The notes under the pieces were generated by a model, which made no database searches, was not told the DNA's origin, and saw nothing but the letters and a program-made list of their open reading frames with translations. From an uncultured Lutibacter sp. (GTDB lineage: Bacteria > Bacteroidota > Bacteroidia > Flavobacteriales > Flavobacteriaceae): DNA of 64,000 bases. The translations under genes were made by a program, and so were the position numbers. How positions within the stretch are numbered: position 1 is the first letter of the stretch; each line of letters opens with the position of its first letter. Shown piece after piece: positions 41,561 to 59,827 of the stretch. The DNA lies in NCBI RefSeq assembly GCF_947495725.1, contig NZ_CANLZZ010000001.1:620001-684000 (forward strand), given 5' to 3'.

Positions 41561-42241
41561 CTAATTATTTATACAATTATCTATAATCGATTTTAAATCG
41601 GAATCATTATTAACAATACTAGTAGCACTACTAATTGATACATTAATTGGATATTGCACACTATAAACTTCGTTTTGAGGTAAATTATTCATGAAAATAA
41701 ACAAATCTTGATCTGATTCTATTGAAATAAAAGTTGTTTGGTCATTGTCTAAATTAAACAACGAAATGCTTATAGGATACTGTATATCAACACAGGTAAT
41801 AGCACTTAAGTTATTAATAATTGCCGAATCACAAATGGCAGATAGATTGCTTATTTCAGTATTATTTGCAACAATTGTTTCGCTATAATCTTGATTTATA
41901 ATTGTTATAGGGAAATCAAAAACTATGGTATCTAAATCAATAGCCGATAAATTAAAAATATCTTTTACCAATTGATAATCTGAAATATTTGATATGGTTA
42001 AAGGAATATTATTAGCTAATAGTGAATATGGAAATTTAACCGAAGAACAAGAAATACTATCTATAAAATCGTCTAATGTTCCATCATACATTCCAATTCT
42101 TTTATATTTATTAGTAATCTCGGAATTACTGTTGTTTGTATTGGGATTTTCACCCTCAGTAACATCAACCTCTTTCATACAGCTAATTGTTATAAGTACT
42201 ATCAGAAATATAAAAGCTATTATTTTACCAAAGAATTTCAT
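41561..42241 (-). CDS. Repeat lipoprotein of unknown function
   Basis: From the ATG at 42241 the product has 226 residues and a lipoprotein signal (FLIVLITISC). After an Asn/Ser/Glu-rich linker there are about three units of ~55 residues built on a (Y/F)P-(I/Y)-(T/S)-(I/L) strand: KFPYSL near 70, DFPITI near 110, QYPISI near 157 and QYPINV near 200. Each is followed by a stretch of Ile/Asn and a short helix, often ending in a Cys. No family is recognised. It may be co-transcribed with the barrel and DUF4382 genes upstream. Confidence 0.65.
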   Translation of the reverse strand: MKFFGKIIAFIFLIVLITISCMKEVDVTEGENPNTNNSNSEITNKYKRIGMYDGTLDDFIDSISCSSVKFPYSLLANNIPLTISNISDYQLVKDIFNLSAIDLDTIVFDFPITIINQDYSETIVANNTEISNLSAICDSAIINNLSAITCVDIQYPISISLFNLDNDQTTFISIESDQDLFIFMNNLPQNEVYSVQYPINVSISSATSIVNNDSDLKSIIDNCINN

Positions 42242-42381
42242 TTGCAAAAATTGTATTATACCAACAAATTTAATTATTAATTAATTTATTAAAATTCTCT
42301 TCTACAAATTCTAAAATTTGATTTTTTCAATCTGAAAAGCGAAGAGAATTTTCAAAAAACGATTATGTAAAAATGCAACTA

Positions 42382-42966
42382 TTAAAATATAAATCCTAAA
42401 GACAATTGCAATACATTATTAAATTCGTTCGTTTCTTCGTAAATTTTACCTAAACCATGGTGGAATCTGGCTCCTAAAACTATTCCTGTTTCTGATTTAA
42501 ATCCAAGTCCAACGTTTGCACCCCAATCTAAAGAATTTGGATCAAAATTACTGTTGCTTCCTCCCAAAAATGTATCAATATTTTCCTTGTGAGAAATAGC
42601 ATACCCAATTTGTGGTCCAGCCTCTAAATAAAATGTTTTTGTTGGGTATAATTTAAGCATTAAAGGAATATTTAAATAGTCTATTTTTTGGGTTAATTTA
42701 AAATTACTATTTTCTATTACATATCCTTGTTGCGAGTATGTTAACTCAATTTGTAAGCCTAAAAAATTATTAATAGAAGATTCGCCAAAAAAACCAACAT
42801 GAAAACCTTCTCGCTGGTCGGTTTCGTTTCCTTCTGAATTTCTTACAGAAGCTAAATTATAACCTCCTTTTAATCCGAAAGACGAATTACTCTTATCAAT
42901 TTTACTACTTTGAGCATTTATAGTTAACGTTGATACAAATGCTATAATTATTACTAATGTTCTCAT
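42382..42966 (-). CDS. Outer-membrane beta-barrel protein (porin/PorT-like)
   Basis: This 194-residue protein has a signal peptide (cleavage near NAQS) and an outer_membrane-beta-barrel (OMP_b-brl_2) pattern. FGLKGGYNLASVRN starts the first strand and later GANVGLGFKSETGIVLGARF and LQLSLGFIF close the barrel. Eight strands are likely. It lies downstream of the DUF4382 gene in the same direction with a hairpin between. Confidence 0.85.
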   Translation of the reverse strand: MRTLVIIIAFVSTLTINAQSSKIDKSNSSFGLKGGYNLASVRNSEGNETDQREGFHVGFFGESSINNFLGLQIELTYSQQGYVIENSNFKLTQKIDYLNIPLMLKLYPTKTFYLEAGPQIGYAISHKENIDTFLGGSNSNFDPNSLDWGANVGLGFKSETGIVLGARFHHGLGKIYEETNEFNNVLQLSLGFIF

Positions 42967-42982
42967 AATTCTTGTTTTTTAA

Positions 42983-43010
42983 TGGCTACATCAAAATGTT
43001 GATGCAGCCA
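42983..43010 (-). other. Hairpin between the DUF4382 gene and the barrel gene
   Basis: A 12-bp stem (TGGCTACATCAA with TTGATGCAGCCA, one A·C mismatch) and a 4-base loop. No T-run follows it on the minus strand, so it is more likely an mRNA-stability or processing structure than a terminator. Confidence 0.5.
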
Positions 43011-43047
43011 AATAGTTATTATTTTTTTTATTTAATTACTGCTTTTG

Positions 43048-43992
43048 TTATTGTTTAGCTTTTAAATTAACTCCTACATTTATGTTTAATGATGAAATAA
43101 TAGAAATATTACCTAAATCAATTCCAGCAATTGACTCTGCAGTTAATAGTCCATTAAACTCAAATCTACCATCATTATCAGTATCTTTATATGAAACAAA
43201 GTGTAATTCGTAATCTCCTTCTGCCAAGAAATTCAACTCATATTTACCTGTAAAAGCATTAACACTAGAACTATTTACTGCGTTTGCAAATAATACTCCG
43301 CTTCCTTGTGCACTTGTTTCTCTATTTTCATTAAAAGTTCCTTTAGTGTATGCATAAACAATTACTTTGTCGGATGTGTTTTGTGTATCGTTTGCCGTAC
43401 CTTTAATTTCTCCTGCATTATCCTCGTTTACAACTCTAATACTAGATGAAAGTTCACTTGAAGAAACAAATTTAAAATCTTCATTTCCACTATCAACAAT
43501 AGATTTTCTAATGTCAAAATCTAATACTACATTATTTGAACTAGTTTCAAAAATTTCAAAAGTGTCATTAATTTTAATAGTACTAGATGAACTTTGTAAT
43601 GCTTTTATAGATCCATTTGTCATTAAAACATAAGAGCCAGGAGCATTTCCATTTGCATCGGTTTCATTATCTAATACTAAGGTTAAATTAGAATATGAAC
43701 CTGCGTTTAACTCTAAATTACCTAGCAACTTTGTCATTCCATTTTGGTATTTCATTAAATCTAAAGTTGTTTTTGAAAATCCTTCTATAGAAACACCATT
43801 TACTTTTACATCTGCTACCGTTACAACAACGCCTTTTACATTTGCATTGTCTGTTGGAGCATCTGTCATATAGAAATTAGTATTGCTTTTTTCTCCTGAA
43901 GGATAATCAGAATCATCATTATTAGAACATGAGATTGTAAAAATTGAAAGTGCTAATGCACTTATTGCGATTGTTAAATTTAATTTTTTCAT
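43048..43992 (-). CDS. DUF4382 domain lipoprotein
   Basis: From the ATG at 43992 the product has 314 residues and a lipoprotein signal (SIFTISC). A DUF4382 domain (about 35-180) starts KSNTNFYMTDAPTDNANVKGVVVTVADV. The second half is a carboxypeptidase-regulatory-like module with YELNFLAEGDYELHFVSYKDTDNDG, a Ca-binding-like DxDxDG turn. An AGGGTAA-N11-GTTGTC motif at 44064-44087 lies upstream on the minus strand, so expression probably depends on the adjacent ECF sigma factor. Confidence 0.85.
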   Translation of the reverse strand: MKKLNLTIAISALALSIFTISCSNNDDSDYPSGEKSNTNFYMTDAPTDNANVKGVVVTVADVKVNGVSIEGFSKTTLDLMKYQNGMTKLLGNLELNAGSYSNLTLVLDNETDANGNAPGSYVLMTNGSIKALQSSSSTIKINDTFEIFETSSNNVVLDFDIRKSIVDSGNEDFKFVSSSELSSSIRVVNEDNAGEIKGTANDTQNTSDKVIVYAYTKGTFNENRETSAQGSGVLFANAVNSSSVNAFTGKYELNFLAEGDYELHFVSYKDTDNDGRFEFNGLLTAESIAGIDLGNISIISSLNINVGVNLKAKQ

Positions 43993-44063
43993 GATTTTAG
44001 ATTTTAAATTTTTATTAATTTTTATAGTTTTCATTTAAACTCATTCGCGAGTTACACTAGTTA

Positions 44064-44087
44064 GACAACCCTCTTTTAGATTACCCT
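44064..44087 (-). promoter_or_regulatory. Predicted ECF-sigma promoter of the DUF4382 lipoprotein gene
   Basis: On the minus strand AGGGTAA (44087-44081), 11 bases, then GTTGTC (44069-44064). The same boxes with the same spacing stand before fecR. The leader to the ATG would be about 65 bases. Confidence 0.7.
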
Positions 44088-44161
44088 ACCCTATTTTTTA
44101 TTTTTTTTCATTTATATCACCTTAATATTTTTATTTTTACCTTTTACTTAAATAAATACGT

Positions 44162-44674
44162 ATGGATTTCACCAATTTATGTGATGAAAAACAATTTGAT
44201 ATATTTTATAAACAACAGGTTAACAATGCTTTTCGTTTTATACTTATAAAAAGTAAAGACAATGATGAGGCGCTTGACATTGTTCAAGAAGCTTTTATAA
44301 AGATTTGGGAAAACTGTAATAAATTTAATTTAGCTAAAGCAAAGTCCTATTTATTTTCCATTGCAAATAATTTATTTTTGAATGTAAAGAAGCACGAAAA
44401 GGTTGTTAGAAATTATGAAAACAACTCTACCAATTTATATATAGAAACAGAAACGCCCGAAGATACCCTAAGAGGAAAAGAGTTTAAGCATAAGTTAGAA
44501 AAAGCACTTGATGAATTAACCAACGCACAAAGAGAAGTATTTTTACTTAACAGGGTTGAAGGAAAAAAATATAGAGAAATTGCCGAAATGTTAGGTATTT
44601 CGGTTAAAGCAGTTGAGAAAAGAATGAGTCAAGCTTTGGTTGTTTTACGAACTAAAATTGAAGAATTTAAATAA
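44162..44674 (+). CDS. ECF RNA polymerase sigma factor (FecI-like)
   Basis: The 170-residue protein has sigma region 2 (about 8-85) with DEALDIVQEAFIKIWENC and region 4 (about 115-165) with LTNAQREVFLLNRVEGKKYREIAEMLGIS and a KAVEKRMSQAL recognition helix. It is followed by fecR 42 bases downstream, so it is a cell-surface-signalling sigma. The region between its end and fecR carries the predicted target promoter. Confidence 0.93.
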   Translation: MDFTNLCDEKQFDIFYKQQVNNAFRFILIKSKDNDEALDIVQEAFIKIWENCNKFNLAKAKSYLFSIANNLFLNVKKHEKVVRNYENNSTNLYIETETPEDTLRGKEFKHKLEKALDELTNAQREVFLLNRVEGKKYREIAEMLGISVKAVEKRMSQALVVLRTKIEEFK

Positions 44675-44681
44675 TTAAGTT

Positions 44682-44705
44682 AGGGTAAAGTTTAATTTAG
44701 TTGTC
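44682..44705 (+). promoter_or_regulatory. Predicted ECF-sigma promoter of fecR
   Basis: AGGGTAA (44682-44688), 11 bases, GTTGTC (44700-44705); the fecR ATG starts 11 bases later. The match to the minus-strand site at 44064-44087 is exact in both boxes and in spacing. Confidence 0.72.
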
Positions 44706-44716
44706 ATATTATTAGA

Positions 44717-45625
44717 ATGAAAGACATTAAAAACATATCGAAATGGTTAAATAATGAAATGACTGAAGAGGAATTCTTGGCTTTTAAGGCCACTGATGAC
44801 TATAAGTTATATAAAGATATTGCTGAAGAAGGTTCTAAAATAAAACTAGCTTCAGTAAATGAAGAAGCAGCCTTAAAAGATTTTAAGGCTCGAATTCAAT
44901 CAAAAACAAAGAAAAAATCCAAAGTTATTTCATTAAAAAGAAGTGTATTTTTTAAAATTGCAGCAAGTTTCGCAGTATTAGTTGCAATTTCATATTTTAT
45001 TTTTAATACCAATCAAATAACACTAAAAACCGATTTTGCCGAAAATAAATCGTTTACATTACCCGATGAATCAAAAGTAATTTTAAATGCTGTTTCAGCT
45101 ATTACCTATAAAAAATCGTTTATAAAAGACCGAGCATTAAAATTAAATGGAGAAGCATATTTTAGTGTAAAAAAAGGAAGTTCATTTACTGTAAACACAA
45201 GTCAAGGTTCGGTACAAGTTTTAGGAACTAAATTTAATGTAAAAAACCGTGAAAAAGCATTTAATGTGTTTTGTTATGAAGGTCGTGTTGAAGTTAAATC
45301 TGGATCCGATAAAATTGTTTTAACCAAAGGTGAAGGTGTTAAGTTAATTGCAAATAATACCCTTATAAAAATAGATAATAACAATATAAATGAACCTTTA
45401 TGGTTACAAAATGAAAGTTATTTTAATGAAGAAATTTATTCTGAAGTTTTAGCGGAGCTAGAAAGGCAATTTAATGTAAAAATTAATTCAAATGCAATAA
45501 ATACCAATGTGTTATTTACAGGTGGTTTTAGAAAAAACGATTTGGATTCAGCAATTAAATCTATTACATTACCTTTAAATATTAACTATCAGATAAAAGA
45601 TAATGAAATTATTTTATCAAAATAA
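44717..45625 (+). CDS. fecR: FecR family anti-sigma/regulatory protein
   Basis: This 302-residue protein has a short cytoplasmic N-terminal part (about 1-80), one membrane helix (about 83-103) and a periplasmic FecR domain. The domain has TLPDESKVILNAVSAI, LNGEAYFSVKKGSSFTVNT and GTKFNVKNREKAFNVFCYEG. The C-terminal DUF4974-type region (VLAELERQFNVKI to NINYQIKDNEI) contacts the receptor's STN domain. It holds the sigma factor inactive until the receptor signals. Its end overlaps the receptor start by 23 bases. Confidence 0.93.
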   Translation: MKDIKNISKWLNNEMTEEEFLAFKATDDYKLYKDIAEEGSKIKLASVNEEAALKDFKARIQSKTKKKSKVISLKRSVFFKIAASFAVLVAISYFIFNTNQITLKTDFAENKSFTLPDESKVILNAVSAITYKKSFIKDRALKLNGEAYFSVKKGSSFTVNTSQGSVQVLGTKFNVKNREKAFNVFCYEGRVEVKSGSDKIVLTKGEGVKLIANNTLIKIDNNNINEPLWLQNESYFNEEIYSEVLAELERQFNVKINSNAINTNVLFTGGFRKNDLDSAIKSITLPLNINYQIKDNEIILSK

Positions 45626-48113
45626 ATGTTGGGTACTTCTTTTTATTGTTCTATTTGTTAATATAAAAGTAAATGCGCAAACCAATTTTTCTTTTTTGGA
45701 AGAATTAAAACTGATAGAAAAAAAGTATGACCTTAAATTTTCTTATGCAATATCCTCTATTGAGAATATTCAAATTCAAAAAAAAATAACTGATTTATCA
45801 ACTTTAGAAGAAATATTATCATACATAAATTCCAATACATTTTTTGTAGCAACTGTAATTGATGAAAGGTTTATTTCAATTGCTCCAAAACTACAAAACA
45901 TAACAATTTGTGGCTATTTATATAATAAAAATTCCAAGCCAATTTCTAATGCATCCATACATATAGCTGGACAACTTTATGGAACAATTACCAACAAAAA
46001 TGGCGCTTTTACATTAGAAAATGTAAAAATATCAGATATTGTAGAATTTAGTTATTTAGGTTATAAAACCATTTTAAAAAATGTAAATGAATTAATTTCA
46101 CCACAATCGGACTGTGTAAAATTAACAATGATTGAGGAAGAATTTGAACTTCAAGAAGTTTTTATTAAAAATTATATTACCAATAGTTTATCAAAACTAA
46201 ACGATGGAACCATTCAATTAAATACTAAAAACTTTAATATTTTATCCGGACAAGTAGAACCCGATTTGTTGCAAACTTCGCAAATATTGCCAGGTATTGA
46301 AAGCCCAAATGAATCTATTTCTAATATAAATATTAGAAATGGAGTAAGCGATCAAAATGTTATTTTTTGGGACAATATTAAAATGTACAATCCAACTCAT
46401 TTTTTCGGACTTATATCTGCTATTAATCCGTATTTAACTAAAAATATTTCAATTATAAAAAACGGAACGAGCGCTAAATATAACGATGGCGTTTCTAGCA
46501 CTATTTTATTGGAAACCGACAAAAACATTCAAAAAGAATTAAGTGGTGGAATGGGTGTTAATTTTATTTCTTTTGATGGATTTATAAAAGTGCCCGTTAA
46601 TAATAAAATGGAATTTAGCACTTCATTTAGAAAATCTAATAACAACTGGTTTAGTACTCCTACTTATAAATCTTACTTCAATAAAACTTTTCAAAATAGT
46701 GCTATTGACACCAATACTTCTAATTCAGATTTTAACTTTTACGATGTAAATTTAAGTTTGTTATACAACTTAAATACAAACAATCATATTAAAGTAAATT
46801 ACATTAAAATAAACAATAATCTTAATTATTATGAATTAGAAGGAAGTAATTTAGCTGACAAAATAAAACAAAACTCCGACGCCATAGGTCTCAGTTATAA
46901 TTCTGTATTAAACAGTAAAACAAAGTTTATAGTTTCGGGATATCATTCTAAATACTCTATACTTTCTAACAATTACCAAAACAATCAACAACAATTGGTA
47001 GTTCAAGAAAATGAAGTTGTTGAAAATTCATTAAAAACAACTTTAAACTACTCCTTTAACAAATATCTAAATTTAGAAACCGGTTATCAATTAAATGAAA
47101 CTGGTGTTTTAAGTAGAACTAATGTAAACAACCCTTTATACAATAGAGTACAACGCAGTGTAATGCGCAATCATAGTGCATTTGCCGAATCTAATTTTAA
47201 AAACGATTATTGGTATGTTAAAACGGGTGTTAGATTCAATTATTTCGATAAAATTAACCAAACAACCATTGAGCCAAGAGTTAACATAAATTATTCTTTT
47301 ACAAAAAACCTTAATTTAAATGCTCAATTTGAAACAAAATCGCAATACACTTCTCAAGTAATAGATTATTTAGACGATTTTTTAGGTGTTGAAACCAGAA
47401 GATGGGTTATGGCCGACCATAATACACCTTTAATAACTAGCCAACAATTTTCTTTAGGTGGCACATTTAAAAAAAATGACTTTCTATTAGATGTTAGTGT
47501 TTTTCATAAAACAATAGATGGGATATTAATTTCGGGGCAGGGTTTTCAAAACCAAATTCAGAATAAAAGATTAGCTGGAAATCAAAAAGCAAATGGACTT
47601 GAAGTTTTACTTAATAAAAGAAGTAAAAAAACTGAGTTTTGGCTATCGTACACTTTAAGCAACAGCGAAATACTTTTTAAACAAGTTTCTGAAGCATATT
47701 TTCCAAGTAATAATGATATTCGGCATTCATCCACCATTGGATTCAATTTTCATTTTAACGAACGTTTAAACACATCTATTAGCGCAATTATAAAATCTGG
47801 AAAACCAAATACGCCAATTAACAAAACCCAAGAAACAAAACAAAATGGAAGTTTTGTTATTGTTAACTATGATGCGTTAAACTCAACAAGATTAAAACCA
47901 TATAATAGAATTGATTTCTCTGTTAATTACCAAATCTTAAAAAGAAAAAAAATACAGTCTAATTTAAAATTTGGAATTTTAAACATGTTAGACACGAAGC
48001 AAATTTTAAATTCATATTATGTTGTTGATCAAAACGATTCCTCAAAAGCTACCAAAGTTGACTTAAAATCATTGGCATTTACACCAAATGTTTCATTTAG
48101 AGTTGCTTTCTAA
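45603..48113 (+). CDS. TonB-dependent outer-membrane receptor with STN domain
   Basis: The 836-residue receptor has a signal peptide (to NAQ, residue 25). An STN signalling domain (about 30-95) has LKLIEKKYDLKFSYAISSIEN. A CarboxypepD-regulatory-like domain (about 100-185) has GYLYNKNSKPISNASIHIAG and a plug follows with NIRNGVSDQNVIFWDN. The rest is a 22-strand-type barrel ending in SFRVAF. There is no SusD partner, so transport of a siderophore, peptide or cofactor is more likely than a polysaccharide. It should signal through FecR to the sigma factor. Confidence 0.92.
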   Translation: MKLFYQNKCWVLLFIVLFVNIKVNAQTNFSFLEELKLIEKKYDLKFSYAISSIENIQIQKKITDLSTLEEILSYINSNTFFVATVIDERFISIAPKLQNITICGYLYNKNSKPISNASIHIAGQLYGTITNKNGAFTLENVKISDIVEFSYLGYKTILKNVNELISPQSDCVKLTMIEEEFELQEVFIKNYITNSLSKLNDGTIQLNTKNFNILSGQVEPDLLQTSQILPGIESPNESISNINIRNGVSDQNVIFWDNIKMYNPTHFFGLISAINPYLTKNISIIKNGTSAKYNDGVSSTILLETDKNIQKELSGGMGVNFISFDGFIKVPVNNKMEFSTSFRKSNNNWFSTPTYKSYFNKTFQNSAIDTNTSNSDFNFYDVNLSLLYNLNTNNHIKVNYIKINNNLNYYELEGSNLADKIKQNSDAIGLSYNSVLNSKTKFIVSGYHSKYSILSNNYQNNQQQLVVQENEVVENSLKTTLNYSFNKYLNLETGYQLNETGVLSRTNVNNPLYNRVQRSVMRNHSAFAESNFKNDYWYVKTGVRFNYFDKINQTTIEPRVNINYSFTKNLNLNAQFETKSQYTSQVIDYLDDFLGVETRRWVMADHNTPLITSQQFSLGGTFKKNDFLLDVSVFHKTIDGILISGQGFQNQIQNKRLAGNQKANGLEVLLNKRSKKTEFWLSYTLSNSEILFKQVSEAYFPSNNDIRHSSTIGFNFHFNERLNTSISAIIKSGKPNTPINKTQETKQNGSFVIVNYDALNSTRLKPYNRIDFSVNYQILKRKKIQSNLKFGILNMLDTKQILNSYYVVDQNDSSKATKVDLKSLAFTPNVSFRVAF

Positions 48114-48127
48114 AAACTACTACAGTA

Positions 48128-48886
48128 TCACCTTCCTCCGTTCGAACGTAAATCTTGCAAGCAAAAAGCATCTAACTCTGGAATTTTTTCTTGGTCAAAA
48201 AAATTGACAACTGTATTCATTCTTTCCATTTTGTAATACATTAAACAATTTTCTGAAGTACAATGCGCTCCATTTGCACTATCGTGATGGTTTTCAATAA
48301 TTGGTGTACCAACATTTACAAGACCTAACAAATGTGAAAATTCATGACGTACTATTGCAGATTCTAATATTGTATTTTTTTCTCCAAACAAATTGCTATC
48401 AGAAAAAGAGTCTGTTGTTTCTTTAAAAATAACAAATGAAGTGTTTCTATAAGCAGTTCCCAGGATAAGTGAATCTTCTTCATTATTGGAAGAAGCACCA
48501 TTTAAATATAAAATAAAAATTGCAAGCTCATTTTCAGTAGAAAACTTGGTTCTATTTTCATCTTCAATACTTCTTATTTTATTTATTGAATAGGAAGATT
48601 CTAGAGGAATATCAATAAGTTTGGTTTCAATATTAATATTGCTTTTAAAAGTTCTTTCTGATATAAAATTTTTAAAACTAGCCAACACTTCATTGCTAGG
48701 CTTAAAATCTTTTACGTATAAAATTTCAACAAAAATATCTGTAAATTTTTCATTTGATAAAATATCTCGTGCCGAATAACCTACTTCTTTTAAATGATAT
48801 GAATTGTTTTTAACCAAATCATCCTCAGATTGACAACTAATTATAAGAACATTTAATACTAAAATATATTTAAATAGTTTTTTCAT
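48128..48886 (-). CDS. Lipoprotein with metzincin-like HExxH motif
   Basis: This 252-residue lipoprotein (signal to VLIISC, Cys18) has a zinc-peptidase motif at about residues 178-188, HEFSHLLGLVN. A NHHDSANGAHC segment and CLMYYKM (a Met-turn candidate) follow. The usual third ligand at position 11 of the motif is Asn here; a nearby His may replace it. Similar membrane-anchored metalloprotease lipoproteins occur in Flavobacteriaceae. It converges on the TonB receptor gene with a 14-base gap. Confidence 0.75.
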   Translation of the reverse strand: MKKLFKYILVLNVLIISCQSEDDLVKNNSYHLKEVGYSARDILSNEKFTDIFVEILYVKDFKPSNEVLASFKNFISERTFKSNINIETKLIDIPLESSYSINKIRSIEDENRTKFSTENELAIFILYLNGASSNNEEDSLILGTAYRNTSFVIFKETTDSFSDSNLFGEKNTILESAIVRHEFSHLLGLVNVGTPIIENHHDSANGAHCTSENCLMYYKMERMNTVVNFFDQEKIPELDAFCLQDLRSNGGR

Positions 48887-58525: not shown

Positions 58526-59827
58526 ATGATTCATAAACAAAAACACGCTCAAGATTTAATCGATTTTATATACGATAGTCCAAGTCCATATCATGTAGTT
58601 AAAAACACTAAAGATATTCTTATTAAAAAAGGATTTTCTGAACTAAAACTAACCCATAAATGGAACCTTGAAAAGGGTAAAAAATATTTTGTTTGTCAAA
58701 ATAACACGTCGCTTTTTGCATTTATTGTTGGTTTAGAAGCAATAGAAGATAATGGTTTTAAAATTATTGCTGCGCATACCGATTCTCCTTCATTTAAAAT
58801 AAAACCATCACCAGAGATTTCTGTTGAAGAAAAATACGTGAAATTTAATACTGAAGTTTACGGAGGTCCAATTTTAAACACTTGGTTAGACAGACCTTTG
58901 TCCATTGCCGGAAGAGTTAGTGTAAAAAGCAACGATATTCTGCACCCAAAAAATTATTTGGTAAATATTAACCAGCCGATTATTACCATTCCTAATTTAC
59001 CAATTCATTTTAATAGAACTGTAAATGAAGGAATTGAGTTAAATAAGCAAATAGATATGCTGCCTGTTACTGCGGTTATAAATGAAGAAATGAATGCCGA
59101 TTCGGTATTATTAAATAGAATTTCCGAAGAAATTAAAGTTCCAAAAGAAGACATTTTAGAAGTAGATTTAAACCTTTACCATTTTACCAAAGGAAGTATT
59201 ATTGGTATGAATAACGAGTTTATTTCATCAGGAAAATTAGACGATTTAGCAATGGTTCATGCAGGATTAACAGCTTTTGCTGAAGCTTCGCCAAGTAAAG
59301 CTACCAATGTTTTAGCATTGTTTGATAATGAAGAAGTTGGAAGTAGATCTAAGCAAGGTGCAGGTTCTCCAATTTTAAAAGATATTTTAACTCGCATTGT
59401 TTCGGTACAAGATAAAAACGAGGAAGACATACAACGTGCTATTTATAATTCATTTATGATTAGTGCAGATATGGCACACGCATTACATCCAAACAGACCA
59501 GAAAAACACGACCCGGTAACAAGACCAGTTATAAACGGCGGACCTGCAATTAAAATTGAAGGAAACCAAAAATATACAACCGATAGCGATTCTGGAGCTG
59601 TATTTGAAATGATTTGTAAAGAAGCTAATATACCATATCAAAAATTTGTAAATAGAAGTGATATGCGAGGTGGTGGAACACTTGGAAATGTTTCCGCAGG
59701 ACAATTAGCCATTCGCTCAGTAGATGTTGGAAACCCAATGTGGGCTATGCACTCGGTTAGAGAAACTAGTGGCGTTGATGATCATACTTTTATAACCGAT
59801 GCTTTTAGGTGTTTTTATGGAATTTAA
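58526..59827 (+). CDS. M18 family aminopeptidase
   Basis: This 433-residue zinc aminopeptidase has AAHTDSPSFKIKPSP (metal ligands His, Asp), LDDLAM, FDNEEVGSRSKQGAG and SADMAHALHPNRPEKHDP. It forms a large oligomer in known members and removes N-terminal acidic or hydrophobic residues in the cytoplasm. The protein is complete. Confidence 0.94.
   Translation: MIHKQKHAQDLIDFIYDSPSPYHVVKNTKDILIKKGFSELKLTHKWNLEKGKKYFVCQNNTSLFAFIVGLEAIEDNGFKIIAAHTDSPSFKIKPSPEISVEEKYVKFNTEVYGGPILNTWLDRPLSIAGRVSVKSNDILHPKNYLVNINQPIITIPNLPIHFNRTVNEGIELNKQIDMLPVTAVINEEMNADSVLLNRISEEIKVPKEDILEVDLNLYHFTKGSIIGMNNEFISSGKLDDLAMVHAGLTAFAEASPSKATNVLALFDNEEVGSRSKQGAGSPILKDILTRIVSVQDKNEEDIQRAIYNSFMISADMAHALHPNRPEKHDPVTRPVINGGPAIKIEGNQKYTTDSDSGAVFEMICKEANIPYQKFVNRSDMRGGGTLGNVSAGQLAIRSVDVGNPMWAMHSVRETSGVDDHTFITDAFRCFYGI

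What the first reader, a model, noticed from the sequence alone, without database searches (positions are those of the whole stretch)
44064..44705. Identical bipartite motif AGGGTAA-N11-GTTGTC before fecR and, on the opposite strand, before a DUF4382 lipoprotein gene
Both boxes and the 11-base spacing match exactly at 44682-44705 (plus) and 44087-44064 (minus), on either side of an ECF sigma gene. This fits an ECF-sigma consensus that activates its own anti-sigma/receptor genes and a divergent surface lipoprotein (with its barrel and repeat-lipoprotein neighbours). That would tie DUF4382, an outer-membrane barrel and a TonB receptor into one regulon not described to my knowledge.
Basis: partly seen in the sequence, partly recalled or inferred. 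Interest (0 to 1): 0.8.

Follow-up and report, generated by a model that had tools for sequence, protein, structure and literature searches.

The report
Paired sigma-factor promoters of surface-protein regulon
Two identical DNA switches on either side of a sigma-factor gene in a Lutibacter genome are very probably the promoters that this sigma factor reads, and the same pair, with a recurring set of surface proteins of unknown role, is found in many other flavobacteria.

Summary
In detail: AGGGTAA-N11-GTTGTC occurs exactly twice in the 4.24 Mb genome, both times here. It is best read as the -35/-10 promoter of the adjacent ECF sigma factor. In 89 dereplicated ECF loci a loose form lies before fecR in 67, on the divergent side in 68, on both in 56; 20 shuffles averaged 0.3 and 0.8. 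A strict form has 24 hits in 38 Lutibacter genomes, all beside ECF genes of this clade, and no control hits. It also led to a further likely target, a small His/Cys-rich protein, C18, sometimes unlinked.

DUF4382 was seen only in Lutibacter-type loci. Elsewhere the divergent unit usually starts with the repeat lipoprotein (73 of 87 loci), often followed by an archaemetzincin-like lipoprotein and the barrel. In Lutibacter a hairpin and a TAAATTTG box leave open whether barrel and repeat lipoprotein follow the ECF promoter. The sigma gene almost never has the motif (1 of 100), so the sigma factor would raise its anti-sigma factor and receptor, not itself. Ligand and function are unknown; nothing was tested at the bench.

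The parts
44682..44705 (+). fecR-side ECF promoter motif AGGGTAAAGTTTAATTTAGTTGTC
   Evidence: loose form in 67 of 89 dereplicated loci at <=1 mismatch
44064..44087 (-). divergent ECF promoter motif AGGGTAATCTAAAAGAGGGTTGTC, before the DUF4382 lipoprotein gene
   Evidence: loose form in 68 of 89 dereplicated loci at <=1 mismatch
44162..44674 (+). ECF sigma factor gene (170 aa; sigma regions 2 and 4); no motif copy facing it
   Evidence: Pfam Sigma70_r2, Sigma70_r4_2; motif on the + strand upstream of the sigma gene in 1 of 100 loci
44717..45625 (+). FecR-type anti-sigma factor (302 aa)
   Evidence: Pfam FecR and FecR_C over cut-off
45603..48113 (+). TonB-dependent receptor, probable transducer (836 aa), with CarboxypepD_reg, plug and an N-terminal STN/FecR_C-like region
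43048..44034 (-). DUF4382 lipoprotein (start more likely 43992, from the signal peptide and lipobox); first gene of the divergent unit in Lutibacter
   Evidence: Pfam DUF4382 81.5 bits; beside 11 of 11 Lutibacter ECF orthologues
42967..43047 (-). intergenic stretch with a hairpin between DUF4382 and barrel genes
   Evidence: predicted in the window and 10 of 10 other loci; window plus 9 loci aligned: 97 of 100 pair cells standard, 2 pairs with two-sided changes, reached by 29 of 500 shuffles
42382..42966 (-). outer-membrane beta-barrel protein (C5)
   Evidence: Pfam OMP_b-brl_2; C5 cluster in 41 of 100 loci
41561..42247 (-). repeat lipoprotein (C3 cluster), here without the C-terminal lipocalin-like domain
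   Evidence: no Pfam or NCBIfam family; C3 cluster in 88 of 100 loci; alignment A3
42265..42272 (-). TAAATTTG, a primary-sigma -7-like box about 18 nt before the listed repeat-lipoprotein start
   Evidence: also found near that start in all 10 distinct Lutibacter loci (160 nt searched each)
48128..48886 (-). archaemetzincin-like lipoprotein (C4), in this strain beyond the receptor gene and without the motif
   Evidence: about 49-55% identical to C4 of the Lutibacter loci shown, where it follows C3; HEFSH and HC....CLM kept; best motif score upstream 4 mismatches

Best explanation
The two boxes are the -35 and -10 elements of promoters read by the ECF sigma factor encoded between them. The system is a cell-surface signalling system of the FecI-FecR-FecA kind: an outer-membrane TonB-dependent transducer meets a ligand, the membrane anti-sigma factor FecR lets go of the sigma factor, and RNA polymerase then starts at (1) the fecR-receptor operon and (2) a divergent unit of surface proteins. 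The sigma gene lacks the promoter, so induction raises the anti-sigma factor and receptor but not the sigma factor, a built-in brake. In Lutibacter the divergent unit begins with a DUF4382 lipoprotein; in most other loci it begins with the C3 repeat lipoprotein, often followed by the C4 metallopeptidase-like lipoprotein and the barrel, and in some genera a third copy of the promoter drives C18. Shown here by computation: the sequences, their conservation, specificity and shared variation. Inferred: promoter activity, sigma dependence, the signalling steps (from work on other CSS systems), co-transcription and any ligand.
For: Exact pair only here in 4.24 Mb. AGGGT-N13-GTTGT at <=1 mismatch: 67 of 89 before fecR, 68 of 89 divergent, 56 both, 79 either; the best other gap gives 18, the opposite strand 0 and 1, the backward pattern 0 and 0, 20 shuffles on average 0.3 and 0.8. 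Second set: 27 loci (3 of 30 dropped as >=90% identical to the first), 12 fecR-side, 22 divergent. 10 distant ECF loci: 1 fecR-side, 0 divergent. Strict pattern: 24 hits in 38 Lutibacter genomes, all 24 within 120 bases of ECF genes, control 0. In 296 order genomes 10 hits: 7 beside ECF genes, 3 before C18 genes, 2 of these unlinked. C18 upstream at <=1 mismatch: 8 of 9 copies in the collected loci, 14 of 18 strong matches (12 of 16 not already found by the pattern), 0 of 7 weak ones. The two sites of a locus agree beyond permutation at position 24 (z 7.9), 20 (5.1), 6-7 (4.7, 4.6), -1 and -2 (4.5, 4.4) and 19 (3.9). The layout (G-rich -35, GTC in the -10, 15 bases between AGGGTA and GTC) fits ECF promoters as recalled.
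Against: No transcription data. 10 of 89 loci have the motif on neither side at <=1 mismatch; in the second set 15 of 27 miss it before fecR, 9 of them with 2 mismatches and 6 with 3 or more. The covariation is partly shared descent: with independent contrasts positions 24 and 20 change identically in 9 of 21 against 8 of 108 for five spacer positions (Fisher p 1.6e-4, positions picked after the z-scores); five box positions together 13 of 53 (p 0.005); positions 19, 6 and 7 taken alone are not clearly raised, and spacer position 10 has z 3.4. In the order-wide search the backward control had 8 hits against 10, though none in the window's family. The window's receptor does not reach the STN or FecR_C cut-off. 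A fecR leader of only about 2-5 nt would be unusual (leaderless mRNAs 5.5% in F. psychrophilum, PMC9723704, passage).
Confidence: 0.92

Rival explanations
1. The boxes are an operator for another regulator (repressor, activator or response regulator) that controls both transcripts, and the ECF acts elsewhere.
For: No transcription start is known; paired identical sites on two divergent units would also suit a classical regulator.
Against: The pair follows one clade of ECF sigma genes across genera with different cargo; it points at fecR and at the divergent gene, and at the sigma gene in 1 of 100 loci only; the gap is fixed; and the boxes are not palindromic (by eye). Among the clusters counted no other regulator accompanies the ECF in most loci; LysR-like C17 (named by eye) was in 11 of 100.
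Confidence: 0.05
2. The promoter reading holds only for fecR-receptor and the first divergent gene in Lutibacter; barrel and repeat lipoprotein are outside the regulon there, served by a primary-sigma promoter and cut off by the hairpin.
For: Hairpin between DUF4382 and barrel in the window and 10 of 10 other loci (10 sequences aligned); TAAATTTG near the repeat-lipoprotein start in all 10 distinct Lutibacter loci and the window; no motif before either gene in the window (3 and 2 mismatches at best).
Against: The hairpin has no T tract on the transcribed strand; covariation support is weak; TANNTTTG as such is at chance in the window; in 73 of 87 other loci the repeat lipoprotein is the first gene of the divergent unit.
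Confidence: 0.4
3. Chance repetition of a 13-base pattern.
For: One-mismatch hits in the genome are at the control level.
Against: Conservation in position and strand in dozens of diverged loci, and no control hits for the strict pattern in 38 genomes.
Confidence: 0.005

Closest known systems
Cell-surface signalling systems (FecI-FecR-FecA of E. coli, FoxI-FoxR-FoxA of Pseudomonas)
   Same: ECF sigma factor, FecR-type anti-sigma factor and TonB-dependent receptor; [quoted passage not shown]
   Different: Here the anti-sigma gene itself lies behind the sigma-specific motif and the sigma gene does not; a second, divergent promoter faces surface lipoproteins; ligand unknown. That fecIR of E. coli is a Fur-controlled pair is recalled.
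ECF/anti-sigma pairs of Bacteroides polysaccharide-utilisation loci
   Same: ECF plus anti-sigma factor plus TonB receptor in Bacteroidota (PUL link: PMC12596196, passages seen; details recalled).
   Different: No SusD-like gene was recognised beside this locus; receptor only 29.2 bits to the SusC/RagA model (cut-off 368); cargo is lipoproteins, a metallopeptidase-like protein and a barrel.
SM6 promoters of Flavobacterium psychrophilum (PMC9723704, passages seen)
   Same: ECF-type promoter class in Flavobacteriaceae.
   Different: SM6 has a CGT box at -10 and includes T9SS genes; here the -10 is TTGTC and the -35 AGGGTA. The SM6 logo was not seen.
Non-canonical promoters linked to SigW-1 and SigH-1 of Bacteroides thetaiotaomicron (PMC12596196 and PMC7366714, passages seen)
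   Same: Proposed ECF promoters with a TGTT motif near -10 (the T variant here reads TTGTT).
   Different: Other ECF groups and targets; the passages seen give no AGGGTA-like -30/-35 sequence.

Membership tests
Cell-surface signalling (FecIRA-type) system | ECF sigma factor with regions 2 and 4 | tested here: met
   Pfam Sigma70_r2 and Sigma70_r4_2 over cut-off, 170 aa
Cell-surface signalling (FecIRA-type) system | FecR-type anti-sigma factor next to the sigma gene | tested here: met
   FecR 64.1 bits and FecR_C 39.1 bits, both over cut-off; a hydrophobic stretch near residues 80-100 is visible in the translation, topology not computed
Cell-surface signalling (FecIRA-type) system | TonB-dependent receptor with N-terminal signalling (STN) domain | tested here: inconclusive
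   Window receptor: FecR_C-like 18.4 bits, cut-off 24.4. At E<=0.05, 25 of 27 N-termini match FecR_C and 7 of 27 STN; the C-terminal subdomain of FoxR is described as a structural homologue of the signalling domain (PMC11637429, passage)
Cell-surface signalling (FecIRA-type) system | Receptor gene transcribed by the cognate sigma factor | tested here: inconclusive
   Conserved promoter-like motif before fecR, with the receptor gene directly behind; no transcription data
[quoted passage not shown]
   needs experiments
NCBIfam TIGR02985 Sig70_bacteroi1 | score over the curated cut-off | tested here: not met
   124.9 bits against 126.4, narrowly short
PUL-type (SusCD) ECF systems | SusC/SusD pair beside the ECF/anti-sigma pair | tested here: not met
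   receptor 29.2 bits to TIGR04056, cut-off 368; none of the eight window genes scanned with Pfam hit a SusD model at E<=0.001
F. psychrophilum SM6 promoter class | CGT box in the -10 region | tested here: not met
   T at position 21 in 75 of 76 loci at each site, G and T at 22-23 in all 76, compared with the description in PMC9723704 (passages, not the logo)
Archaemetzincin (C4 protein) | HExxH...C...CxM signature and NCBIfam archmetzin score | tested here: inconclusive
   H181 E182 H185 G188 H208 C209 C214 M216 conserved in at least 95% of 49 aligned members; a Kordia member scores 20.4 bits, cut-off 145, the window's copy has no hit at E<=0.01. That this is the archaemetzincin signature is recalled

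The most novel reading that the evidence does not exclude
A flavobacterial signalling regulon with an exceptionally selective promoter (GTAGGGTA[A/T]-N10-agTTGTcTTA) that acts as an exchangeable slot. Each lineage plugs its own surface lipoprotein genes into it: C3-C4-barrel, thioredoxin/ApbE/DUF3570 sets, DUF4382 in Lutibacter, plus scattered C18 genes. The core cargo pairs a surface metallopeptidase with a lipoprotein that carries a potempin-like lipocalin domain, so the system may sense and answer a proteinaceous or metal signal at the cell surface with a protease/inhibitor pair.
Probability: 0.25. Interest if true: 0.75.

Novelty: new variant of a known kind. Interest (0 to 1): 0.56.

Why it matters
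In the papers I saw, few ECF promoter sequences of Bacteroidota are described (EcfO, SM6, the B. thetaiotaomicron non-canonical promoter). This one can be read from sequence alone and is selective enough (24 of 24 hits in the genus at the expected place) to list candidate regulon members genome by genome. It already links protein families without a Pfam or NCBIfam model (C3, C18) to a signalling system. It suggests a brake design in which the anti-sigma factor, not the sigma factor, is behind the induced promoter, and a case in which one lineage has an unrelated gene (DUF4382) as the first gene behind such a promoter.

Tried and rejected
Allowing mismatches in the own genome: hits fall to background, so no further regulon member is claimed there. 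C18 in Lutibacter: 1 of 38 genomes with a weak match (19.8 bits, stop inside), taken as spurious. DUF4382 structure: pLDDT 32, not used. PDB sequence searches with the C3 family and with DUF4382: one weak hit each. Pfam and NCBIfam for C3 and C18: no family over cut-off. Sigma-70 promoter and terminator scans: at the shuffle level, not used. Considered and dropped: a PUL/SusCD system, the SM6 promoter class, chance.

Literature: in the listings no title or abstract start reports this motif or a DUF4382-ECF link. The listings were capped (20 of 24 and 20 of 94 papers seen), and passages of only a few papers were opened. The ECF re-classification paper and the EcfO paper are not held. So novelty in print is only as good as that. 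The search for potempins returned no paper on their structure; that potempins are peptidase inhibitors encoded next to peptidases is recalled.

Full report
Two exact copies of AGGGTAA-N11-GTTGTC lie at 44682-44705 (+) and 44087-44064 (-), on either side of an ECF sigma gene. In the whole 4.24 Mb genome there are no other exact copies; with one mismatch there are 4 hits in all against 6 for the backward-read control. One of them, at 58674, is inside an ORF. The exact pair therefore stands out, but mismatched copies in this genome mean nothing.

The locus. ECF sigma factor (44162-44674), FecR anti-sigma factor (44717-45625) and TonB-dependent receptor (45603-48113) run to the right; DUF4382 lipoprotein, beta-barrel protein and repeat lipoprotein run to the left. 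The repeat lipoprotein and the protein at 48128-48886 match no Pfam or NCBIfam family. The organism is taken to be a Lutibacter, from the titles of two of the three nearest named relatives.

Conservation. The 10 other Lutibacter orthologues (80% identity or more) carry the 13-base motif on both sides with at most one mismatch. Of 100 loci plus the window, 89 remained after dropping 12 with ECF proteins at least 95% identical. With the fixed pattern AGGGT-N13-GTTGT and at most one mismatch, 67 of 89 have it before fecR, 68 of 89 on the divergent side, 56 on both, 79 on either and 10 on neither. At the other gaps from 8 to 19 the highest count is 18 of 89 (gap 16, probably an echo of the flank); the opposite strand gives 0 and 1, the backward pattern 0 and 0, and 20 shuffles average 0.3 and 0.8 (at most 2 and 3). 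A second set of 27 loci (3 of 30 dropped as near copies) gave 12 before fecR and 22 on the divergent side; of the 15 misses before fecR 9 have two mismatches and 6 three or more. Of 10 distant ECF loci (27-33% identity) 1 has it before fecR and none on the divergent side.

Specificity. The strict pattern AGGGTW-N12-GTTGTCWTA gives 24 hits in 13 of 38 Lutibacter genomes, none for the control; by coordinates all 24 lie within 120 bases of an ECF gene listed (21 hits at the DUF4382-type orthologues, 3 at two paralogues). The window's own divergent copy is followed by TAA and so does not fit this strict form. Across 296 genomes of the order a strict pattern gives 10 hits in 5 genomes, against 8 control hits in other families. 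Seven of the ten are beside these ECF genes. The other three each lie before the same kind of gene, C18, for a protein of about 150 residues with a signal-peptide-like start (by eye) and an HCxxHCxH-type cluster; one is 3.1 kb from an ECF gene in the same cluster, two are unlinked. C18 genes inside the collected loci have the motif in 8 of 9 cases, 42-56 bases before the listed start (the ninth has 3 mismatches). In 199 family genomes 25 C18 matches were found; of the 18 strong ones 14 have the motif at one mismatch or less (12 of the 16 not already found through the motif), of the 7 weak ones none. Lutibacter has no convincing C18.

Shared variation. The two copies of a locus agree more than copies from different loci at position 24 (C or T, z 7.9), 20 (5.1), 6 and 7 (4.7, 4.6), -1 and -2 (4.5, 4.4) and 19 (3.9); most spacer positions do not, though spacer position 10 reaches 3.4 (76 of 89 loci, 500 permutations, relatedness not removed). 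With non-overlapping tree contrasts the copies change identically in 4 of 9 (position 24) and 5 of 12 (position 20), against 8 of 108 for five spacer positions. The Fisher test gives p 1.6e-4, but those two positions were picked after the z-scores; five box positions together give 13 of 53 and p 0.005. I read this as moderate support for one reader of both sites.

What the module is. By sequence clusters in the 100 loci (not dereplicated), FecR is present in 100, the receptor in 98, the C3 repeat lipoprotein in 88, C4 in 48, C5 (barrel) in 41 and the DUF4382 gene in 13, all of the Lutibacter type. In the 87 loci without DUF4382, C3 is the first divergent gene in 73 (4 have no gene held on that side), and among those 73 C4 is near in 35 and C5 in 28. 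Eleven of 11 Lutibacter ECF orthologues, window included, have DUF4382 beside them; 21 of 38 Lutibacter genomes have DUF4382 somewhere, 37 matches in all. A further set of loci has longer C3-like lipoproteins and often AGGGTT-type motifs; in the Lutibacter locus L046 these are followed by thioredoxin, ApbE and DUF3570 genes. ECF genes of this clade (E at most 1e-30) occur in 46 of 296 order genomes, 41 of them in the window's own family, where 50 were searched.

Protein hints. C3 proteins carry a lipobox and repeats around FP/YPI and, outside Lutibacter, a C-terminal domain. A model of the Kordia protein (mean pLDDT 74) shows beta-beta-beta-alpha repeats and a small barrel-like domain at 252-352, which Foldseek places near the uncharacterised Bacteroides protein 5byp (E 6e-4) and, weakly, potempin E (E 0.02, TM-score by target 0.73) and lipocalins. 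C4 keeps HEFxH, GLxN and HC....CLM in at least 95% of 49 aligned members, like archaemetzincins as recalled, but a member scores far below that family's cut-off. That potempins inhibit neighbouring peptidases is recalled; the protease/inhibitor reading is speculative, and the window's own C3 protein lacks the barrel domain.

Inside the Lutibacter divergent unit. Between DUF4382 and the barrel gene a hairpin is predicted in the window and in 10 of 10 other loci. In an alignment of the window and 9 of them 97 of 100 pair cells are standard and 2 pairs change on both sides, which 29 of 500 shuffles also reach. It has no T tract on the transcribed strand. Near the repeat-lipoprotein start there is a TAAATTTG box in the window and in all 10 distinct Lutibacter loci, like the TAnnTTTG -7 box of the primary sigma factor (PMC9723704 and PMC7366714, passages seen). 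These loci are close relatives, and the pattern as such is at chance in the window (122 matches, 128 expected). So in this genome the ECF promoter is firmly placed only before fecR and DUF4382.

How it most likely works. By analogy with studied cell-surface signalling systems (PMC11637429, abstract and passages seen): ligand at the receptor, release of the anti-sigma factor's hold, free sigma factor, transcription from the two promoters. The receptor N-terminus looks like a signalling domain in relatives (25 of 27 match FecR_C, 7 of 27 STN at E at most 0.05), but the window's copy is below the cut-offs. The motif faces the sigma gene in 1 of 100 loci only, so the induced genes would include anti-sigma factor and receptor but not the sigma factor.

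Verdict. A real, conserved and unusually selective promoter-like pair, very probably read by the ECF sigma factor between the copies; a new variant of a known kind of signalling system; DUF4382 is a lineage-specific gene behind it. Literature listings showed no report of the motif or of a DUF4382 link, within an open-licence library that lacks key ECF papers.

Noticed in passing
window 42967-43047 (-): Hairpin between the DUF4382 and barrel genes, predicted in the window and 10 of 10 other Lutibacter loci, without a T tract on the transcribed strand; role unknown.
   Followed up: partly
window 42265-42272 (-): TAAATTTG, a primary-sigma -7-like box shortly before the repeat-lipoprotein gene, found near that gene in all 10 distinct Lutibacter loci examined.
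   Followed up: partly
window 48128-48886 (-): Archaemetzincin-like lipoprotein gene that follows the repeat lipoprotein in the other Lutibacter loci but here lies beyond the receptor gene.
   Followed up: partly
L163 1501-2031, L165 986-1527, L167 1010-1527: C18: His/Cys/Tyr-rich protein family, probably exported, without Pfam or NCBIfam model, preceded by the same promoter motif; possibly metal-binding.
   Followed up: partly
L053 5236 (-) and 5303 (+); L054 11941 (-) and 12066 (+): In two Lutibacter loci with a 42-44% identical ECF, two back-to-back motif-like boxes (2 mismatches each against AGGGTA-N12-GTTGTC) lie between a thioredoxin-like/ECF gene cluster and a divergent gene run with cytochrome-like CxxC(H) proteins (by eye); none at <=1 mismatch before fecR.
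   Followed up: no
L046 3408-7985; also L045, L051, L081, L085, L101: A further class of the same ECF module with longer C3-like lipoproteins, often AGGGTT-type motifs, and in L046 thioredoxin, ApbE and DUF3570 genes behind the lipoprotein.
   Followed up: partly
L025 1446-1423 (-): An ECF locus of another family of the order (about 31% identical) has GGGGTAA-N11-GTTGTCTTA at the same place before fecR, hinting that the promoter type is older than the window's family.
   Followed up: no
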